Assembly (NCBI GenBank): GCA_025055235.1
Contig: JANWYN010000057.1
Coordinates: forward strand, 1-39,502
Reading direction: 5' to 3'
DNA length: 39,502 bases
Source: Candidatus Roseilinea sp.
GTDB lineage: Bacteria; Chloroflexota; Anaerolineae; J036; Brachytrichaceae
Within the stretch, counting starts at the first letter, position 1. Every line of letters starts with the position of its first letter. The position numbers were made by a program, and so were the translations under genes. The notes beneath the pieces were generated by a model. That model had not been told where the DNA came from and did no database searches. It saw only the letters and a list, made by a program, of their open reading frames with translations. This document shows, in pieces, positions 9,770 to 31,267 of this stretch.

Positions 9770-11215
9770 CTACCCCGCCAGATACTTCGCCAGCTCTACC
9801 ATGGGGTAGCTCACGCGCTGGCCGTAGGGCCGACGACCTTTGTCGAAGGTCGCGTCAATGCCGATCTTGGTGCCGATGCCCTTCGCGTCGTTGGCCGGGT
9901 CCATCTCGTGGCCCTGCGCCCGCGGCACGGTGAACACGTCCTGCCCCCAGTCCACCCGCGTCGTCAGTGCCCACATCAGATCGCTGGGGTCGTAGATGTT
10001 CACGTCGCTTTCGACCACCACACACACGCGGAAGTTCGGGTGCGCAGCAAAGGCGGCCAGCGCGACGTTGCGCGGCTCGCCCATGTTCGTCTTCTTGTCG
10101 AGCTGCACCACCACCAGGAAGCCGTTGGTGTAGGGCGGGATGTGCACGGCGCGCACGTTCTTGCTGGCGTGGCGGACGAAGCGCATCAGCAGCGGCTCGC
10201 GCGGCAGCACATTGCCGATGTAGATGTGCTCGTTCCAGCCGGGCACGATGGTCTGGAAGATCGGGTTGTCGCGATGGCCGATCGCCGTCACCTCGAACAC
10301 CGGCGACTCCCACGGCTCGCCGTAGTAGCCGTGGAACTCGGCCAGCGGGCCCTCGCTCCGCCGCACGCCCGGCAGCACGTGCCCCTCCAGCACCAGCTCG
10401 GCGTGCGCCGGGATCGTGTCCACGTCCACCGTCACGCCGCGCGTCACCTCGACCGGCCGGCCGCGGATCGCGCCGGCGATGTTGTTCTCGTCGCCCTCGT
10501 ACTTGCAGCCGGCGGCGATCATCAGCGCCGGATCCAGGCCGATGGCGACGGCGATGCCGAGCGGCTGGCCCTTGGCCTCGGCAGCGGCGTGGGCGCGCTG
10601 CACGTCGCGCCACTGGTTGATGTTCATGCCCAGCGTGCGCGGGCCGAGGATCTCCATGCGGTTGTAGCCCAGGTTGCCCACGCCCGTTTCGGGATGCTTG
10701 CTCACGATCACGCCGCCCGTGATGAAGCGCCCGCCGTCGCCCACGGCGTGCTTGGGGATGGGCAGCCGGTTGACGTCAATCGCGTTGGGGTCGGTGATGA
10801 GGTGCTGCTTCCACGGCGCATCGGCGACGCAGACGGGCGGGATGGCGTTGGCAGGTTCGAGCGCGCGCGCCATGGTCGCCGTCACCTCGCCCTTCTCGCA
10901 GCCGAGCGCCAGCGCCACGCGCTCCTGGTTGGCCACGGCGCTGCTGAACAAGCGCCAGCCGTCGAACCTCCTATAGCATCCGGAGTCTTGGGCTTGTTGA
11001 GAGTCCTGAGCTTGTCGAGACCCCTGAGCTTGCCGAAGGGAAGGGTCGCCCTCGTAGATGCACTCGAACAGCGGCGCCGGCCCGCCGATGCGCTCGCACG
11101 TCGCGCCGATGTCGGCGACTTCGTGGATGATGCTGACCGGCTTGGTGATGCGCACCAGTTGGCCGCGCTGCTCCAGCAGATCGAGATAGGAACGCAGGTC
11201 GTAAATGTCGTGCAT
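9770..11215 (-). CDS. UbiD-family decarboxylase with an in-frame repeat insertion
   Basis: A 481-residue member of the prFMN-dependent UbiD family of reversible (de)carboxylases. ATG 11215 is preferred over the in-frame GTG at 11242 because a TACAAT hexamer lies between them. Family signs are VADIGATCERIGGPAPLFE near the start, GNLGYNRMEILG (metal/prFMN region), GCKYEGDENNIAGAIRG, and SEGPLAEFHGYYGE carrying the catalytic acidic residues. Between ECI and FDGWRLFSS is an extra loop reading RQAQGS, RQAQDS, QQAQDS, encoded by three 18-bp repeats. The usual prFMN synthase (UbiX) is not next to it. The substrate is unknown; a menaquinone-pathway or aromatic-acid role is possible. Confidence 0.88.
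   Translation of the reverse strand: MHDIYDLRSYLDLLEQRGQLVRITKPVSIIHEVADIGATCERIGGPAPLFECIYEGDPSLRQAQGSRQAQDSQQAQDSGCYRRFDGWRLFSSAVANQERVALALGCEKGEVTATMARALEPANAIPPVCVADAPWKQHLITDPNAIDVNRLPIPKHAVGDGGRFITGGVIVSKHPETGVGNLGYNRMEILGPRTLGMNINQWRDVQRAHAAAEAKGQPLGIAVAIGLDPALMIAAGCKYEGDENNIAGAIRGRPVEVTRGVTVDVDTIPAHAELVLEGHVLPGVRRSEGPLAEFHGYYGEPWESPVFEVTAIGHRDNPIFQTIVPGWNEHIYIGNVLPREPLLMRFVRHASKNVRAVHIPPYTNGFLVVVQLDKKTNMGEPRNVALAAFAAHPNFRVCVVVESDVNIYDPSDLMWALTTRVDWGQDVFTVPRAQGHEMDPANDAKGIGTKIGIDATFDKGRRPYGQRVSYPMVELAKYLAG
10984..11038. repeat. Three tandem 18-bp repeats inside the UbiD gene
   Basis: Units at 10984-11001, 11002-11019 and 11020-11038 are variants of AGTCCTGAGCTTGTCGAG. This is the same core (GACAAGCTCAG on the other strand) as intergenic copies at 13-33, 17406, 17479, 17612 and 28011. 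The 18-bp length keeps the reading frame and adds about 18 residues. Confidence 0.85.
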
Positions 11216-17519: not shown

Positions 17520-17836
17520 CCGCGCTGAATGGGGCGGGGCGATGGGCAGATCCGTGCGGTAGCCGCGGGCTGCATGCCTGCGGCCGATGGGATGACCATC
17601 GCGCCGGCTGACGCGCAGGCTGAGCTTGTCGAAGCCCGCTTCTGCTGCAGAAGCAGCTAAAACACGGGTAGAGCAGGACTAGCACGGAAGTTCTGTGCAA
17701 CGAACAGTGCGAAAGCGGGAATCCAGCCATGCATAGTCTCTAGATGCCCTGTCATCCCCGCGCAGGCGGGGACATCCCCGCGTAGGCAGGGAGTGCGCGG
17801 GCATGACGCATCCGCGGTTCCAGGACTGAACACGCT
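17520..17836 (-). repeat. Composite dispersed repeat, copy A
   Basis: Read on the minus strand, this matches 27857-28135 in order. Shared blocks are GTGTT(C/T)AGTCCTGG, then CGTCATGCCCGCGC, then TATGCATGGCTGGATTCCCG, then a GACAAGCTCAG core, then GCGCGATGGTCATC, then GGCTACCGCACGGAT. Small indels separate the copies. Confidence 0.75.
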
Positions 17837-17904: not shown

Positions 17905-18903
17905 ATGCTTGCGCTCGTCACCGGCGCGACCGGCTTCATCGGCGCCAACCTCGTCGAAACATTGAACCAGCGCGGCTGGGCGGTGCGTGCGCTGCACCGG
18001 CCGTCGTCGTCGCTCAAAGCGCTGGCCGGCCTGCACTACGAATCGGCCATCGGCGACGTGACCGACCCGGCGTCGCTCGGCGCGGCGATGGCCGGCGTGG
18101 ATGTGGTCTTCCACGTTGCGGCTGTCGCCGACTACTGGCGCAGCGATGCCGGCAAGATGATGCGCGTGAACGTGGGCGGCACGCGCAACGTGCTGCAGGC
18201 GGCGCTGGACGCGGGCGTGCGGCGCGTGGTGTTCACCAGCAGTTGCGCCTCGCTCGGCCGGCCGCCGTTCGGCCAGGCGCTCGACGAACGTGCGCAGTTC
18301 AACCTGCAGCCACACGAGTTCCCCTACGGCTACAGCAAGCACCTGGCCGAGCAGGTATGCCGCGAGTTCGTCGCGCGCGGGCTGGATGTGGTCATCGTCA
18401 ACCCGGCAGTGGTGTTCGGCCCGCGCGACGTCAACCTAATCAGCAGCAGCTTGATCGTCGAAGCGGCGCAGCGCATCATCCCCTTCGCCCCGCCCGGCGG
18501 CGTGAGCGTGGTGGACGTAGCCGATGTGTGTGCAGGGCACATCGCTGCTGCCGAGCGCGGATGCACCGGTGAGCGCTATATCCTGACCGGCGAGAACCTC
18601 ACCTACCGGCAACTGTTCGACATCGTGGCCGACGTGGTGGGCCGGTCACGGCCTCGTCTGGTGTTGCCGGCTGTGTTGTTCAAAGCAGTCGCTCCGGCGG
18701 TGGACTTCCTGCATCGTGGGTTGGGCTGCAAGCTGCCGGTCAGCGGCGAGCAGGTGCGCTTCGCCGCCGAGACATTTTGGTTCGACCCGAGCAAGGCCCG
18801 GCACGAACTGGGGCTGACGACGCGGCCGGTCGCCGAGACGATCGCGCGGACGTATGCGTGGTATGTGGCGCATGGGTATATAAACGTGGATCGTAGATCG
18901 TGA
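17905..18903 (+). CDS. NAD(P)-dependent epimerase/dehydratase (extended SDR)
   Basis: A 332-residue extended short-chain dehydrogenase. The nucleotide-binding motif is TGATGFIGANL (7-17), the acidic/aromatic patch is VVFHVAAVADYW, and the catalytic pair is Y...K in YGYSKHLAE. The sequence resembles dihydroflavonol-4-reductase-like and HpnA-like members, which act on sugar-nucleotides, ketones or hopanoid-related lipids. The exact substrate cannot be told. The final residues (NVDRRS and stop) are encoded within a heptamer repeat array, so the native C-terminus has been replaced or trimmed. It stands alone, with short flanking promoter space. Confidence 0.85.
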   Translation: MLALVTGATGFIGANLVETLNQRGWAVRALHRPSSSLKALAGLHYESAIGDVTDPASLGAAMAGVDVVFHVAAVADYWRSDAGKMMRVNVGGTRNVLQAALDAGVRRVVFTSSCASLGRPPFGQALDERAQFNLQPHEFPYGYSKHLAEQVCREFVARGLDVVIVNPAVVFGPRDVNLISSSLIVEAAQRIIPFAPPGGVSVVDVADVCAGHIAAAERGCTGERYILTGENLTYRQLFDIVADVVGRSRPRLVLPAVLFKAVAPAVDFLHRGLGCKLPVSGEQVRFAAETFWFDPSKARHELGLTTRPVAETIARTYAWYVAHGYINVDRRS

Positions 18904-18932
18904 ATCGTGAATCGTGGGTTGCGGAGCGTGGA
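18884..18932. repeat. Heptamer array 1, 5' of the S23 gene
   Basis: Seven consecutive 7-bp units of ATCGTGA type (including AACGTGG, ATCGTAG, ATCGTGA twice, ATCGTGG). The epimerase TGA (18901-18903) lies inside. The same units occur in reverse orientation at 19382-19423, on the other side of the S23 gene. Confidence 0.85.
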
Positions 18933-18975
18933 GCTCGTATGGAATCGGACTAGTCGTCCGTGAGAGGAGGAAGCA

Positions 18976-19377
18976 ATGATTGCAAAAGATCATCGCGAGT
19001 TGAGGGTCTGCCGGCTTGCCTTTGAATCGGCTCTGGAGATCCACAAACAAAGCGCACACTTCCCACCGGAGGAGAAATACAGCTTGACCGATCAGATCCG
19101 CCGATCGTCGAGATCCATCTGCGCCAACATCGCCGAAGCCTGGCGAAAGCGTCGCTATCCCAACAGCTTCGTGAGCAAATTGAGCGATGCCGATTCGGAA
19201 TCTGCCGAAGTGCTCGTGTGGCTCGAGTTCGCGCTGAGCTTCGGGTATATCACCAACGACGCCTTTCGAGAGCTGAACGACAGGTATGCGCATATTTCGA
19301 GTCAACTGGCGTTGATGATGGCCGAACCGGAGAAGTGGAAGCACCGCGAGCGCACCGATGCTTTGAACCAAAGCTAG
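18976..19377 (+). CDS. Four-helix-bundle protein, S23/23S-rRNA-intervening-sequence family
   Basis: A 133-residue all-helical protein matching the S23 family (TIGR02436-like) in layout: HRELRVCRLAFESALEIHK, then LTDQIRRSSRSICANIAEAWRKR, then FVSKLSDADSESAEVLVWLEFAL. Family members are often encoded inside 23S rRNA intervening sequences, or stand alone as here, and related Avd proteins serve diversity-generating retroelements. Function is unknown; a basic surface suggests nucleic-acid binding. AGGAGG (18965-18970) with a 5-nt spacer fixes the start. The gene is bracketed by inverted heptamer arrays (18884-18932 and 19382-19423), suggesting a discrete cassette of about 540 bp. No reverse transcriptase or rRNA lies nearby. 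Confidence 0.88.
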   Translation: MIAKDHRELRVCRLAFESALEIHKQSAHFPPEEKYSLTDQIRRSSRSICANIAEAWRKRRYPNSFVSKLSDADSESAEVLVWLEFALSFGYITNDAFRELNDRYAHISSQLALMMAEPEKWKHRERTDALNQS

Positions 19378-19381
19378 CTGC

Positions 19382-19423
19382 TTCCACTTCACGATCCACG
19401 ATCCACGTTGCACGTTACACGAT
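19382..19423. repeat. Heptamer array 2, 3' of the S23 gene (inverted)
   Basis: Six consecutive 7-bp units of N-CACG-(A/T)-T type. Their reverse complements include ATCGTGA, ATCGTGG and AACGTGG, identical to units of array 1. The array begins 4 nt after the S23 stop and ends 5 nt before the holA ATG. Confidence 0.85.
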
Positions 19424-19428
19424 TTGCC

Positions 19429-20448
19429 ATGTGGTACCTCTTCCATGGCCCGAACACCCTGGCGCGCGATGAGGAAATCGCTCGCATGAAGGCGAAACTG
19501 GGCAAGCCGGAGATAGCATCGCTCAACACGACGGTCATCGAGCGGGGCGCGCCGTTGCGCGACCTGATCGCGGCATGCGACGCGATGCCCTTCCTCACCG
19601 ATAAACGCCTGGTGATTGCGCCGGGCTGGCTGACCGGCCTGGGTGTGCCGAAAGCCAAGGCCAAGCCGGGGGACGCCGGCCCGCTGCAAGCGCTGCTCGC
19701 CTACCTGCCGGCTATGCCGGAGACCACGCGCCTGGTGTTCGCCGAAGACGTCACCCTGGACGATGCGCACCCGATCGTCAAGCTCGCCGCCGACAAGGCT
19801 GGCGGCGGCGTCGTCAGACGCTACGAGCTGCCGCCCGATCCTGTGCCATGGATCATTGAACGCGCGAAGGCGAAGGGCGGGGATATCTCGCACCAGGCTG
19901 CACAATTGCTCTCCATCAAGATCAACCGCGGCAACCCCAACGATCGCGATCATTTCGAATCCGACAGCCGGGCATACTTGCTCAAGCTGGACAACGAACT
20001 CGACAAGCTGGTGAGCTACGCGCTGGGCCGGCGCATCGAAAGCGCGGATGTCGAGTTGTTGGTGCAGGACGAGGACGTAGCCGACATATTCAAGTTCGTG
20101 GACGCAATGGGTGCGCGCGACGCCGAGGCTGCCTATCGCGCCATGCGCGGCCTGTTGGCACGCGGCGAGTCGCCGCTGGTCGTGCTTGCGCACATCGCCC
20201 GGCAGACGCGCCTGCTCATCCAAGCGAAGGAGAATGCGCATCTCAGCCCGGAGCAACTGGCGCGCGCAATCGGCGTGCATCCGTTCGTGGCGAAGAAGGT
20301 GTCGCAGCAGGCCGGCCGCTTCTCGCTGAGCGAGCTGGAGCAAGCACACGCTGCGCTGTTGGAAGCCGACCTGGCCATCAAGACCGGACGGATGGACGAC
20401 GCGACTGCGCTCGATGTGCTGGTGGCGGCACTGTGCGCGGAAGCATGA
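19429..20448 (+). CDS. holA: DNA polymerase III delta subunit
   Basis: A 339-residue clamp-loader subunit. It opens the sliding clamp as part of the delta/delta-prime/tau assembly during chromosome replication. Family signs are the start MWYLFHGPNTLARDE, the MPFLTDKRLVI stretch of domain I (usually PFF..RRLV), the Walker-less ATPase-like fold, the ELDKLVSYA helix of domain III, and the C-terminal collar with HIARQTRLLIQAKE. ATG 19429 is taken because it starts the conserved sequence; an in-frame TTG at 19408 lies in the repeat array. There is no Shine-Dalgarno, and the space where one would lie is occupied by heptamer array 2. Confidence 0.88.
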   Translation: MWYLFHGPNTLARDEEIARMKAKLGKPEIASLNTTVIERGAPLRDLIAACDAMPFLTDKRLVIAPGWLTGLGVPKAKAKPGDAGPLQALLAYLPAMPETTRLVFAEDVTLDDAHPIVKLAADKAGGGVVRRYELPPDPVPWIIERAKAKGGDISHQAAQLLSIKINRGNPNDRDHFESDSRAYLLKLDNELDKLVSYALGRRIESADVELLVQDEDVADIFKFVDAMGARDAEAAYRAMRGLLARGESPLVVLAHIARQTRLLIQAKENAHLSPEQLARAIGVHPFVAKKVSQQAGRFSLSELEQAHAALLEADLAIKTGRMDDATALDVLVAALCAEA

Positions 20449-20460
20449 CCGATGTCGGGA

Positions 20461-20600
20461 TGATGGACGATCAATAATGGATGATTGATGATGGATGATT
20501 GATGATTGCAAACTGACGACCAGCGACTAACGACTAACGACCAGCCACCAGCAACCAGCAACTAGCCACCAGCCACCAGCGACTAGCCACCAGCAATCAA
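20461..20600. repeat. Heptamer array 3: about 20 units in one register
   Basis: The stretch divides into 20 successive 7-bp units. The left third is TGATGGA/TGATTGA type and the rest CGACTAA/CCACCAG type. All 20 units have A at position 3, and position 4 is T or C throughout. It lies between the convergent holA and SH3 genes and contains the SH3 gene's last codons and stop (20583-20585). Confidence 0.9.
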
Positions 20601-22169: not shown

Positions 22170-22628
22170 ATGAACCTCGGCCGATTGATCGAGCAAAAGT
22201 TGAAGGAAGCCCGCGAGGCGGGCAAGTTCGACAACCTGCCGCGCAAAGGGCGGCTCGATCTCAGCGAAGACGACGGCGTGCCGGAAGACGAGCGCTTAGC
22301 GATGCACCTGCTGAAGTCGAATGACTTTTTGCCGGCGTGGATCGAGGAGGACAAGGCGTTGCGCGAGAAGCTCGCCGAGGCGCGCGGCGCGCTCTACCGC
22401 GCCTATGCCTGGCGGCGTCGCCGGCTGGCGCAGGCGGTGCATGCCGGCGAACGTAGCCGCATCGAGCGCGAATGGGAACGCGCACGTGCAAAGTTCGAAC
22501 GGGACGTTGAGGAGATCAATCGCGACATCTTCCACTTCAACCTGCGCGCGCCGTCATCGGCGGTGCATCGCCTGCCGCTGCGCCTGCAAGAGGAGTATGC
22601 GCGGCTGGAGCGGGCGATGGATGATTGA
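22170..22628 (+). CDS. DUF1992 (DnaJ subfamily C member 28-like) protein
   Basis: A 152-residue soluble protein with the DUF1992 signature LIEQKLKEAREAGKFDNLPRKGRLDLSED at 6-34, also found in the eukaryotic DNAJC28 protein. It lacks a J domain. The rest is strongly charged and helical (EREWERARAKFERDVEEINRDI), probably coiled coil. Molecular function is unknown in bacteria. It has its own -10 (TACAAT, 22158-22163) and is divergent from the LacI gene. The final MDD and stop lie in heptamer array 4. Confidence 0.85.
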   Translation: MNLGRLIEQKLKEAREAGKFDNLPRKGRLDLSEDDGVPEDERLAMHLLKSNDFLPAWIEEDKALREKLAEARGALYRAYAWRRRRLAQAVHAGERSRIEREWERARAKFERDVEEINRDIFHFNLRAPSSAVHRLPLRLQEEYARLERAMDD

Positions 22629-22656
22629 TGATGGATGATTAATGATGGAGATTGGA
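22615..22656. repeat. Heptamer array 4
   Basis: About six 7-bp units alternating TGATGGA and TGATTGA/TGATTAA, the same units as the left part of array 3. The DUF1992 stop (22626-22628) lies inside. A less regular stretch continues to about 22690. Confidence 0.8.
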
Positions 22657-29542: not shown

Positions 29543-31267
29543 TCAGGCTGTTTGCTTCTCGCGTTCGACGATCACCGGCTTGATCAGCGGCGCGCCCTTG
29601 TCGTACTCGATGGCTGCCTCGATAAACGCCTTGAACAGCGGGTGTGGGCGATTGGGCCGGCTCTTGAACTCCGGGTGGAACTGGCTGCCCAGCATGAACG
29701 GGTGATCGCGCAGCTCGCAAATCTCCACCAGCCGGCCGTCCGGCGAAAGGCCGCTGAATACCAGGCCGGCGGCGCCCAGCGACTTGCGGAATTCGTTGTT
29801 GAACTCGAAGCGATGGCGATGGCGCTCTTGCACGGTGACCGCGCCGATGGCCGAGTCGCTGCGTAGGCCGTTGACGACGCTTGCACCGGACATTTCACCC
29901 TTGTCCAACGCGCTCACGTAGGCGCGATGCGCGCGCGTGCCGGGCACGAGCTGGCACGGATACACGCCTAGGCGCATCGTCCCGCCCATGTCGCTGATGT
30001 CGCGCTGGTCGGGCATCAAGTCAATCACCGGATAGGGAGTGGTGTGGTTGAACTCGGTGCTGTTCGGCTCGCGGCTGTTCAGCACGAAGCGGGCAAACTC
30101 GATGCACATCACTTGCATGCCCAGGCATAGCCCTAAGTAGGGCACGGCGTTCTCCCGTGCATATTGCGCGGCGATGATCTTGCCTTCGATGCCGCGATAG
30201 CCGAAGCCGCCCGGCACCACGATGCCCGAGACGCGTTCCAGCCGGTCTAGCCCCTCGCCACGCTCAAGCGCCTCGCTGTTGAGCCAGACCAGGTGCACAT
30301 CGCGCCCGCAAGCCACGCCGGCGTGGTAGAGCGCCTCGCGCACGCTGATGTAGGCGTCGTGCAACTCGACGTATTTGCCCACGATGGCGATGTGCAGCGG
30401 CGGCTTGGGCCGGCGCATCTCCGCGCACATCGCCCGCCATGCGCTTAGGTCGGCGGCCGGGCAGCTCAGTTGCAGGCGCTCGCACAGGTAATCGCCGAAG
30501 CCCATGTCCTCCAGCATCAGCGGCACCTCGTAGAGGTAGTTCGTGGTCACCATCGGCAACACGGCGCGCGGCTCGACGTCGCAAAACAAGGCGATCTTTT
30601 CACGCAGCTCGTCATCCACCGGCTCGTCGCTACGGGCGATAATGGCGTCGGGCTGGATGCCGGCCCCGCGCAGGTCGCGCACGCTGTGCTGGGTAGGCTT
30701 GGTCTTCAGCTCGCCGGTGGCGCCAACCTTGGGCAGGAAAGTGACGTGCACGTAGAACGTGCTGTCGCGTCCTACGTCCCGGCGCATCTGGCGGATGGCC
30801 TCGATGAACGGCATGGCTTCGATGTCGCCCACCGTGCCGCCCACTTCGACGATGACCACGTCGGCGGTGCTGCTCTTGGCGACCAGCGAGATGCGCCGCT
30901 TGATCTCGTTCGTCACGTGCGGCACCACCTGGATGGTCTTGCCCAGGTAGTCGCCCCGGCGCTCCTTGCTGATGACCTCGTTATAGACCTGGCCGGTAGT
31001 CACGTTGCAGGCGCGCGTGAGGTTCTCGTCAATGAAGCGCTCGTAGTGGCCCAGATCGAGGTCGGTCTCCGCGCCGTCCTCGGTCACGAATACCTCGCCA
31101 TGTTGGTAGGGCGACATCGTGCCCGGATCCACGTTCAGATATGGGTCGAGCTTTTGAATCGCGACGCGCAGCCCGCGCGCTTTCAGCACGCGGCCGATGG
31201 CAGCCGCCGTCACCCCTTTGCCCACCGAGCTGACGACGCCGCCCGTACAAAAGATGAACTTAGGCAT
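29543..31267 (-). CDS. pyrG: CTP synthase
   Basis: A 574-residue enzyme making CTP from UTP, ATP and glutamine. The synthetase domain has the P-loop SVGKGVTAA (14-22), [16 protein letters not shown] and the [10 protein letters not shown] motif. The glutaminase domain has oxyanion VPGGFGYRG, nucleophile C381 in GLCLGMQ, and H531/E533 in QFHPEF. The loop between MRLGVYPC and [11 protein letters not shown] is longer by about 20 residues than in the E. coli and B. subtilis enzymes as I recall them. GAGGAG precedes the ATG by about 9 nt. It is transcribed divergently from livK and convergently with the ABC ATPase gene. Confidence 0.96.

What the first reader, a model, noticed from the sequence alone, without database searches (positions are those of the whole stretch)
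18883..19423. S23 four-helix-bundle gene bracketed by inverted heptamer arrays
Array 1 (18884-18932) and the reverse complement of array 2 (19382-19423) share the exact units AACGTGG, ATCGTGG and ATCGTGA. Between them sits only the S23-family gene with its own Shine-Dalgarno. The boundaries are tight: array 2 starts 4 nt after the S23 stop and ends 5 nt before holA. This looks like a self-contained cassette of about 540 bp inserted between the epimerase and holA. S23 genes are known passengers of 23S rRNA intervening sequences, so a mobile unit using heptamer arrays as its ends is an interesting hypothesis.
Basis: partly seen in the sequence, partly recalled or inferred. Interest (0 to 1): 0.8.

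Follow-up and report, generated by a model that had tools for sequence, protein, structure and literature searches.

The report
S23 genes bracketed by inverted mini-repeats
In the bacterial genomes examined here, a small gene of unknown function (S23, a four-helix-bundle protein) usually sits between two mirror-image runs of 7- or 8-letter DNA repeats, and together they look like a tiny mobile element that may explain some of the unexplained short repeats in such genomes.

Summary
Two period-7 arrays with shared units in inverted orientation bracket an S23 (PF05635) gene; neither array nor their match is chance (0/5000, 0/5000, 0/2000 shuffles). Correction: array 1 overlaps the epimerase's last codons.

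It is a rule with exceptions. All nine non-Avd S23 genes of this genome carry such arrays, seven of period 7, two of period 8. Of 142 evaluable loci, 119 have period-7/8 arrays, 92 of them also an inverted match; 15 have neither; displaced controls 3 and 0 of 106. Unit length and sequence follow the S23 lineage, also between phyla. Cassettes run in sense with neighbours and are present, decayed or absent at conserved junctions and on Nostoc plasmids.

Best reading: a small, probably selfish, intervening-sequence-like mobile element whose ends are inverted tandem arrays; the 23S rRNA IVS looks like a special case. Movement, enzyme and the role of S23 are not shown; a test for a selected sense-RNA stem was negative. 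Ten full-text searches listed no report of this link.

The parts
17905..18903 (+). upstream gene: NAD-dependent sugar epimerase (HpnA-like); its stop TGA lies inside array 1
   Evidence: PF01370 1.6e-36; TIGR03466 7e-91, but below that model's cut-off; frame
18883..18931 (+). array 1 (5' arm): five clear heptamers AACGTGG/ATCGTRR to 18917, then two decayed units
   Evidence: TRF 18885-18916 period 7; 0/5000 shuffles
18965..18970 (+). Shine-Dalgarno AGGAGG of the S23 gene
   Evidence: read; no promoter-like site in 18700-19500
18976..19377 (+). S23 / 23S rRNA intervening-sequence protein (four-helix bundle), 133 aa
   Evidence: PF05635 1.4e-28 over cut-off; TIGR02436; PDB relatives 2gsc and 2rld, 3.1e-7
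19382..19423 (+). array 2 (3' arm): six period-7 units whose reverse complement matches array 1
   Evidence: TRF 19390-19423; inverted match score 21, 0/2000 shuffles
19429..20448 (+). downstream gene holA (DNA polymerase III delta)
   Evidence: TIGR01128 3.8e-63
20512..20594 (+). S23-less array of CGACCAG-type heptamers; same unit family as both arms of the S23 cassette at G000:C131 (L003)
   Evidence: TRF; 21 hits in the own genome, the query itself included, among them C131:29371-29434 and 29821-29854; alignment scores 38 and 34 to the two arms of L003

Best explanation
The 540-bp unit is one copy of a widespread small mobile element made of an S23 (four-helix-bundle) gene between two inverted tandem arrays of 7- or 8-bp units. 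The arrays are the element's ends and are inherited with the S23 gene; the unit length (7 or 8) is mainly a trait of the S23 lineage, while the unit sequence drifts. The element sits in sense orientation beside its neighbours, most likely expressed by read-through, and behaves like a selfish intervening sequence: gained at new junctions, decaying in place, sometimes lost. S23-less inverted arrays (hairpins) in some of these genomes are probably its non-autonomous or decayed derivatives, and the S23-bearing 23S rRNA intervening sequence (IVS) is probably the same kind of element in an rRNA gene. Shown: the association, inversion, lineage linkage, orientation and presence/absence. Inferred: that it moves as a unit. 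Conjecture: S23, a pentamer in a solved relative (PMC4990558, passage), holds the two arrays with one subunit per repeat unit and recruits an enzyme in trans.
For: Nine of nine S23 genes that are not Avd-like in G000 have arrays on both sides (by eye; by the automatic measure nine of nine for period and seven of nine for inversion; one search lists 11 PF05635 matches, of which L014 is Avd-like and L015 below cut-off). Wider set: 119 of 142 evaluable loci have period-7/8 arrays, 100 of 142 an inverted match >=15, 92 both; cross-locus pairs reach 15 in 154 of 3000; displaced flanks 3 of 106 with period-7/8 arrays (7 with any period) and 0 of 106 inverted. holA control: inverted >=18 in 0 of 21. 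Period label on a quick S23 tree of 76 rows: 8 changes against 25.4 shuffled, 0 of 500 as low. Unit similarity against S23 identity, pairs with shared host flank excluded: r 0.355, 0/500; GC removed, different phyla only: r 0.398, 0/300. Orientation: same strand as the upstream gene in 50 of 51 resolved and as the downstream gene in 55 of 62 (98 examined). Junctions without or with decayed cassettes in the genus; Nostoc plasmids with and without it before one integrase gene. S23 DNA identical over 366 bp between G006 and G008 with flanks at 92-94%. G053 and G008, with S23, show no other arrays in 200 and 220 kb samples.
Against: No movement seen; no catalytic gene in the cassette; no clear target duplication. 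Solo arrays without S23 are frequent in G006 (21 in 400 kb) and G000, and 4 of 21 holA loci, the window's own among them, also pass the period threshold, mostly through one array on one side. 15 of 142 loci show neither feature and 19 of 142 match better in direct than in inverted orientation; L033 is direct by eye. Two of eight plasmid S23 genes read by eye lack an array on at least one side (L177, L179). Sister S23 genes L004 and L007 have different periods. At most loci shared in the genus the cassette looks vertically inherited, so movement is rare. The Xanthomonas paper reports that its heptamers are generally not associated with mobile elements (PMC4692102, passage), and the Beggiatoaceae TAACTGA sets are nearly all direct (169 direct, one inverted; PMC4679880, passage).
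Confidence: 0.66

Rival explanations
1. The arrays serve as an RNA stem. The cassette is tolerated because its transcript folds with the arms paired and S23 in the loop, and is trimmed by RNase III as in rRNA IVSs; the arm match is kept by selection on that RNA.
For: The predicted fold of 18870-19435 pairs array 1 with array 2 around S23. Sense orientation. [quoted passage not shown] 5' arms have more G than C in 69 of 74 loci, a polarity that a strand-specific RNA role could explain.
Against: Transition mismatches between arms favour A-C over G-U (174 to 119 in 74 loci; distal part 141 to 92 in 79 loci, p 0.0016), the opposite of selection for sense-RNA pairing, though base composition could bias this. 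Fold z-score only -1.77.
Confidence: 0.3
2. The arrays belong to the host. Heptamer arrays arise by slippage anywhere, and S23 genes are carried into them by recombination between arrays of the same unit.
For: Dispersed same-unit arrays without S23: 21 hits for CGACCAG and 8 for CGTGGAT in G000, each count including the query itself; 21 arrays in 400 kb of G006. Unit-like sequence in the S23-free G006 junction.
Against: Insertion into an array would leave direct, not inverted, flanks (inverted higher in 117, direct in 19 of 142). G053 and G008 have S23 cassettes but no background arrays in the samples. Unit length follows the S23 lineage: octamer cassette L002 sits in G000, and the 400-kb sample of its congener G006 held no octamer array.
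Confidence: 0.2
3. S23 is an ordinary regulator that binds the arrays (DNA or 5' UTR) and controls itself and neighbours; the arrays are operators, not mobile ends.
For: Array directly upstream of the start codon; period tied to the protein lineage suggests recognition; homopentamer reported for a relative (PMC4990558, passage).
Against: Neighbours differ among the nine loci of G000 (by eye); an inverted copy downstream is not explained; cassettes decay or are absent in congeners.
Confidence: 0.15

Closest known systems
S23-bearing intervening sequences (IVS) of 23S rRNA (Leptospira, Coxiella; also CPR bacteria)
   Same: S23 ORF in an element with inverted repeats; the Coxiella IVS has two or three tandem heptamers GACAGAT plus a degenerate one just upstream of the S23 ORF (PMC4990558, passages); S23 ORFs also in 16S and 23S insertions of CPR bacteria (PMC11270868, passage)
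   Different: Here the unit lies between protein genes; the inverted arrays are general, of period 7 or 8, and follow the S23 lineage. The passages of PMC4990558 that I saw mention the heptamers upstream of the ORF only.
REPIN / RAYT system (recalled; PMC3116915 on REPINs seen only in the listing)
   Same: A gene flanked by inverted repeats, with dispersed gene-less inverted copies of the same repeat in intergenic space (recalled)
   Different: RAYT is a tyrosine transposase (recalled); S23 has no known catalytic site. The repeats here are tandem short units, not fixed palindromes.
Intergenic heptamer arrays of bacteria (STRR of cyanobacteria, recalled; GGGAATC of Xanthomonas; TAACTGA of Beggiatoaceae)
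   Same: Period-7 tandem arrays; 70 inverted pairs reported in Xcc and 75 in Xac (PMC4692102, passages)
   Different: The term S23 does not occur in the main text of the three papers searched; Xanthomonas heptamers were not found associated with mobile elements, TAACTGA sets are nearly all direct; [quoted passage not shown]
Avd of diversity-generating retroelements
   Same: Related four-helix bundle: bAvd PF22296 1.1e-5 and DivGenRetAVD 6.1e-5, both under cut-off
   Different: No reverse transcriptase gene inside the cassette; the Avd-like locus L014 of this genome has no period-7/8 arrays.

Membership tests
PF05635 / TIGR02436 (S23, 23S rRNA intervening-sequence protein) | score over the curated cut-off | tested here: met
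   99.7 bits against 33.8; 92.9 against 24
23S rRNA intervening sequence (IVS) | S23 ORF inside an element with inverted ends | tested here: met
   arrays and inverted match
23S rRNA intervening sequence (IVS) | located inside an rRNA gene | tested here: not met
   lies between epimerase and holA; no rRNA at gathering score in L001 or in 12 other S23 loci, ten of which lack arrays
23S rRNA intervening sequence (IVS) | excised from the transcript by RNase III | not testable with these tools
   needs RNA; the G-U/A-C test did not support a selected stem
Mobile element | present and absent at conserved junctions | tested here: met
Mobile element | own recombinase or transposase, target duplication | tested here: not met
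   only the S23 ORF lies between the arrays; no clear duplication at the thiolase junction (by eye)
Mobile element | observed movement | not testable with these tools
   needs populations or experiments
Diversity-generating retroelement accessory protein Avd | Avd model over cut-off | tested here: not met
   23.3 bits against 80; 26.3 against 40

The most novel reading that the evidence does not exclude
S23 proteins define a class of mobile elements whose ends are recognised by repeat period rather than by sequence: the S23 oligomer reads 7- or 8-nt registers, so the unit sequence can drift freely while both arms stay matched. This system, active in trans, would also make or spread many of the S23-less heptamer hairpins of bacterial genomes, including long-unexplained intergenic heptamer arrays; rRNA IVSs would be its best known but least typical members.
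Probability: 0.35. Interest if true: 0.92.

Novelty: new variant of a known kind. Interest (0 to 1): 0.8.

Why it matters
[quoted passage not shown] S23 proteins have solved structures but, by the one paper read in passages, no known function (PMC4990558). Linking the two gives both a testable role: the protein lineage predicts the repeat period. It also recasts the 23S rRNA IVS as one landing site of a more general element, and offers a handle on how inverted short arrays are made and kept matched.

Tried and rejected
Viral contigs: no match to the S23 peptide patterns. Phages: no tblastn match. PADLOC: none. Host-seeding of units: tested on 84 loci; a small excess (p 0.015 and 0.004) is confounded by array remnants outside my boundaries, so I do not rely on it; the G006 junction is kept as an anecdote. 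RNA-stem selection: tested and not supported. Chance or composition: rejected. My automated measure starts after the stop codon and so misses downstream arrays that lie inside long frames (L013, inverted score 8), and L003 scores 10 there although its arms are inverted by eye and scored 19 with wider windows; counts are therefore somewhat conservative. The first run of the survey script stopped with an error after 34 rows and was replaced. Xanthomonas (XCC0516 = 2gsc; GGGAATC arrays) could not be reached. An earlier count said that 16 relatives keep epimerase-holA; the count is 15. Literature: ten searches used; papers were seen as listings or passages only, none in full; preprints and most subscription papers are not held.

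Gene names thiolase, BchL/BchX-like, MurB-like and the reverse transcriptase beside L014 are read by eye and come from no family search. Phyla of the named loci are taken from their record titles; that the G-numbered relatives are Chloroflexota is my inference from the nearest named S23 loci.

Full report
CHECK. Each array's period-7 score of 0.875 was reached in 0 of 5000 shuffles, and the inverted match of 21 in 0 of 2000. The gene between is S23/PF05635, a four-helix bundle by TIGR02436 with solved relatives 2gsc and 2rld. One correction: the epimerase frame ends at 18903, inside array 1.

THE SAME GENOME. PF05635 gives 11 matches in G000. One is Avd-like beside what looks like a reverse transcriptase, without period-7/8 arrays (L014), and one is below cut-off (L015). 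The other nine all have short arrays on both sides in inverted orientation, each with its own unit: read upstream in gene sense ATCGTGA, GGGACAAG, CTGGTCG, GTTGGCAC, GTTGCAG, GTAACTA, AATTGAA, TCTTTCA, GTCGGGA (by eye). Two of these are octamers (L002, L004). The automatic measure finds the period in nine of nine and the inversion in seven of nine (L003 and L013 fail it for the reasons given under Tried and rejected).

THE WIDER SURVEY. I collected S23 loci from relatives (matches in 43 of 60 genomes; I used the 29 loci that it laid, one per genome), from one scan of named genomes (79 loci, many phyla), from four of those genomes (16 matches, 15 used, the one below cut-off dropped, four of the 15 being repeats of loci already held) and 20 regions in seven congeners and class members. 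After removing five duplicates and L014 (L015 was never put in), 147 remain; five have too little flank. Of the 142, the best of periods 4 to 12 is 7 in 69 and 8 in 63; 119 pass the array threshold with period 7 or 8 (3 with another period); 100 have an inverted match >=15 against 154 of 3000 cross-locus pairs; 92 have both; 15 have neither; the inverted score exceeds the direct one in 117 and the reverse holds in 19. Flanks 600-900 bp away: 3 of 106 with period-7/8 arrays, 7 of 106 with any period, 0 of 106 inverted >=15. An earlier cut with 97 loci gave 72 strong arrays, 71 of them of period 7 or 8, against 1 of 97 strong in displaced controls, of period 12. As a gene control, 21 of the 30 holA-search loci were measured: inverted match >=18 in 0 of 21, but 4 of 21, the window's own among them, pass the period threshold, mostly through one array on one side. 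Eight S23 genes on cyanobacterial plasmids, not in these counts, were read by eye: six have octamer arrays on both sides; L177 lacks the downstream one and L179 has none next to the gene (24 plasmid records have S23). The set is biased towards relatives of the window protein and towards strong PF05635 scores.

LINEAGE LINK. On a quick tree of 76 S23 proteins with a clear label (of 118 loci, 81 labelled, five of these too short), period 7 or 8 needs 8 changes, against 25.4 on average for shuffled labels, 0 of 500 as low. The tree has few columns and 29 of 71 inner branches are unresolved. It mixes phyla. The window's S23 groups with Chloroflexota cassettes, six of whose seven are heptamer ones, and L002, of the same genome, with an octamer clade spread over many phyla. 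Unit sequence follows too: Mantel r 0.355 with pairs that share host flanks removed (25 pairs; 113 loci; 0/500), 0.355 with GC removed and 0.398 for pairs from different phyla (0/300 each). The window's CGTGGAT/CGTGAAT units resemble the CGTGGAG/CGTGAAG units of its near S23 relatives L045-L047. So the arrays travel with the gene. Exceptions exist: sister S23 genes L004 and L007 have periods 8 and 7.

PRESENCE, DECAY, ABSENCE. At epimerase-holA, 15 of 20 relatives' loci have an epimerase relative upstream of holA and none of the 20 has S23 (21 loci given with the window's own, of 30 fetched; some of the five without epimerase are cut by contig ends). The junction of G006 holds AACGTGGATCG and CCACGATCC without a cassette: either the host sequence from which array 1 began, or the scar of a lost copy. 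In G020 and G015 the junction has arrays of other units without S23. At a thiolase junction, by eye, G000 and G004 have the cassette, G006 and G001 decayed copies with the same heptamers, G005 a short leftover, G002 unrelated sequence and G008 a clean GAATTAGGAGTAATC junction. At a BchL-like junction G000 and G002 have it, G005 and, less surely, G001 and G008 remnants, G006 and G003 nothing, and G007 an S23-less hairpin of GCGTATT units. On Nostoc plasmids S23 with AGCAGGGG-type octamers precedes an integrase gene in L175 and L176, while the six related plasmids that I fetched (L202-L207, of ten listed as two- or three-piece matches) have the integrase region with no S23 before it; in L207 the integrase is annotated in two pieces. 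One locus shows S23 DNA identical over 366 bp between G006 and G008 with flanks at 92-94%; at the MurB-like junction the S23 of G000 is only 48-50% identical in protein to that of G006, G008 and G001 although the downstream flank is 90-92% identical, and the unit differs as well, as if the cassette had been replaced whole. Most other shared loci look vertically inherited.

ORIENTATION AND EXPRESSION. S23 runs with its upstream neighbour in 50 of 51 resolved cases and with its downstream neighbour in 55 of 62 (98 of the 113 loci examined, 47 and 36 unresolved; I did not measure how often ordinary genes of these genomes do so). No promoter-like site lies in 18700-19500. This is what an intervening sequence in a transcript looks like. 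But the signature of a selected RNA stem is missing: transition mismatches between arms are A-C rather than G-U, 174 to 119 (74 loci) and 141 to 92 in the distal part (79 loci). The 5' arm has more G than C in 69 of 74 loci. The match of the arms therefore more likely comes from a DNA-level copying process; this is inference.

ARRAYS WITHOUT S23. G006 has 21 heptamer arrays and no octamer arrays in 400 kb; seven of the 21 have an inverted partner with score 16 or more within 40 bp. G056 has 2.5 per 100 kb; G053 and G008 (with S23) and G036, G016 and G013 (no S23 match) have none in the sampled 179-220 kb each, those of G016 and G013 from one contig. In G000 the CGACCAG family has 21 hits, the query included, among them both arms of an S23 cassette, and units drift along some arrays (L316, L320). 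This resembles autonomous and non-autonomous copies, but solo arrays could also be an independent slippage product.

KNOWN THINGS. The Coxiella IVS has tandem heptamers GACAGAT directly upstream of its S23 ORF and its RNase III site at the first of them (PMC4990558, passages); a CPR survey found S23 ORFs in both 16S and 23S insertions (PMC11270868, passage). Three papers on heptamers, searched for the term, do not hold 'S23' in the main text (PMC4679880; PMC4692102; PMC6344855); one of them reports no association of its heptamers with mobile elements and another nearly only direct sets. Ten full-text searches listed no report of the link that I recognised; subscription papers and preprints are not held, so it may exist in print.

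VERDICT. The association is very secure (about 0.97). That array-S23-array is a mobile unit with the arrays as ends is likely (0.66). How it moves, and what S23 does, is open.

Noticed in passing
window 20458-20508 and 20512-20594: Two S23-less heptamer arrays (GATGATT, then CGACCAG type) directly after holA; the second belongs to a family with 21 hits in the genome, itself included.
   Followed up: partly
window 22616-22654: Further heptamer array (GATGGATGATTGAT) overlapping the 3' end of a DnaJ C28-like ORF.
   Followed up: no
L316, L320, L321 (G000): Heptamer arrays in which the unit changes step by step or several unit families follow each other head to tail, as if copied from one another with errors.
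   Followed up: partly
L175, L176, L178 (Nostoc and Tolypothrix plasmids): S23 cassette directly upstream of a tyrosine recombinase gene in three plasmids.
   Followed up: partly
L179:4161-4290: S23-less inverted octamer hairpin (62-nt loop) on a Nostoc commune plasmid near an S23 gene.
   Followed up: no
L033 (G015): S23 with arrays of the same unit in direct, not inverted, orientation.
   Followed up: no
L014 (G000:C142): Avd-like protein beside a reverse-transcriptase-like frame (by eye): probable diversity-generating retroelement, without period-7/8 flanking arrays.
   Followed up: no
window 10983-11036: Three copies of an 18-bp repeat GAGTCCTGAGCTTGTCGA.
   Followed up: no
window 17753-17792: Two copies of a 20-bp repeat CATCCCCGCGCAGGCAGGGA.
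   Followed up: no
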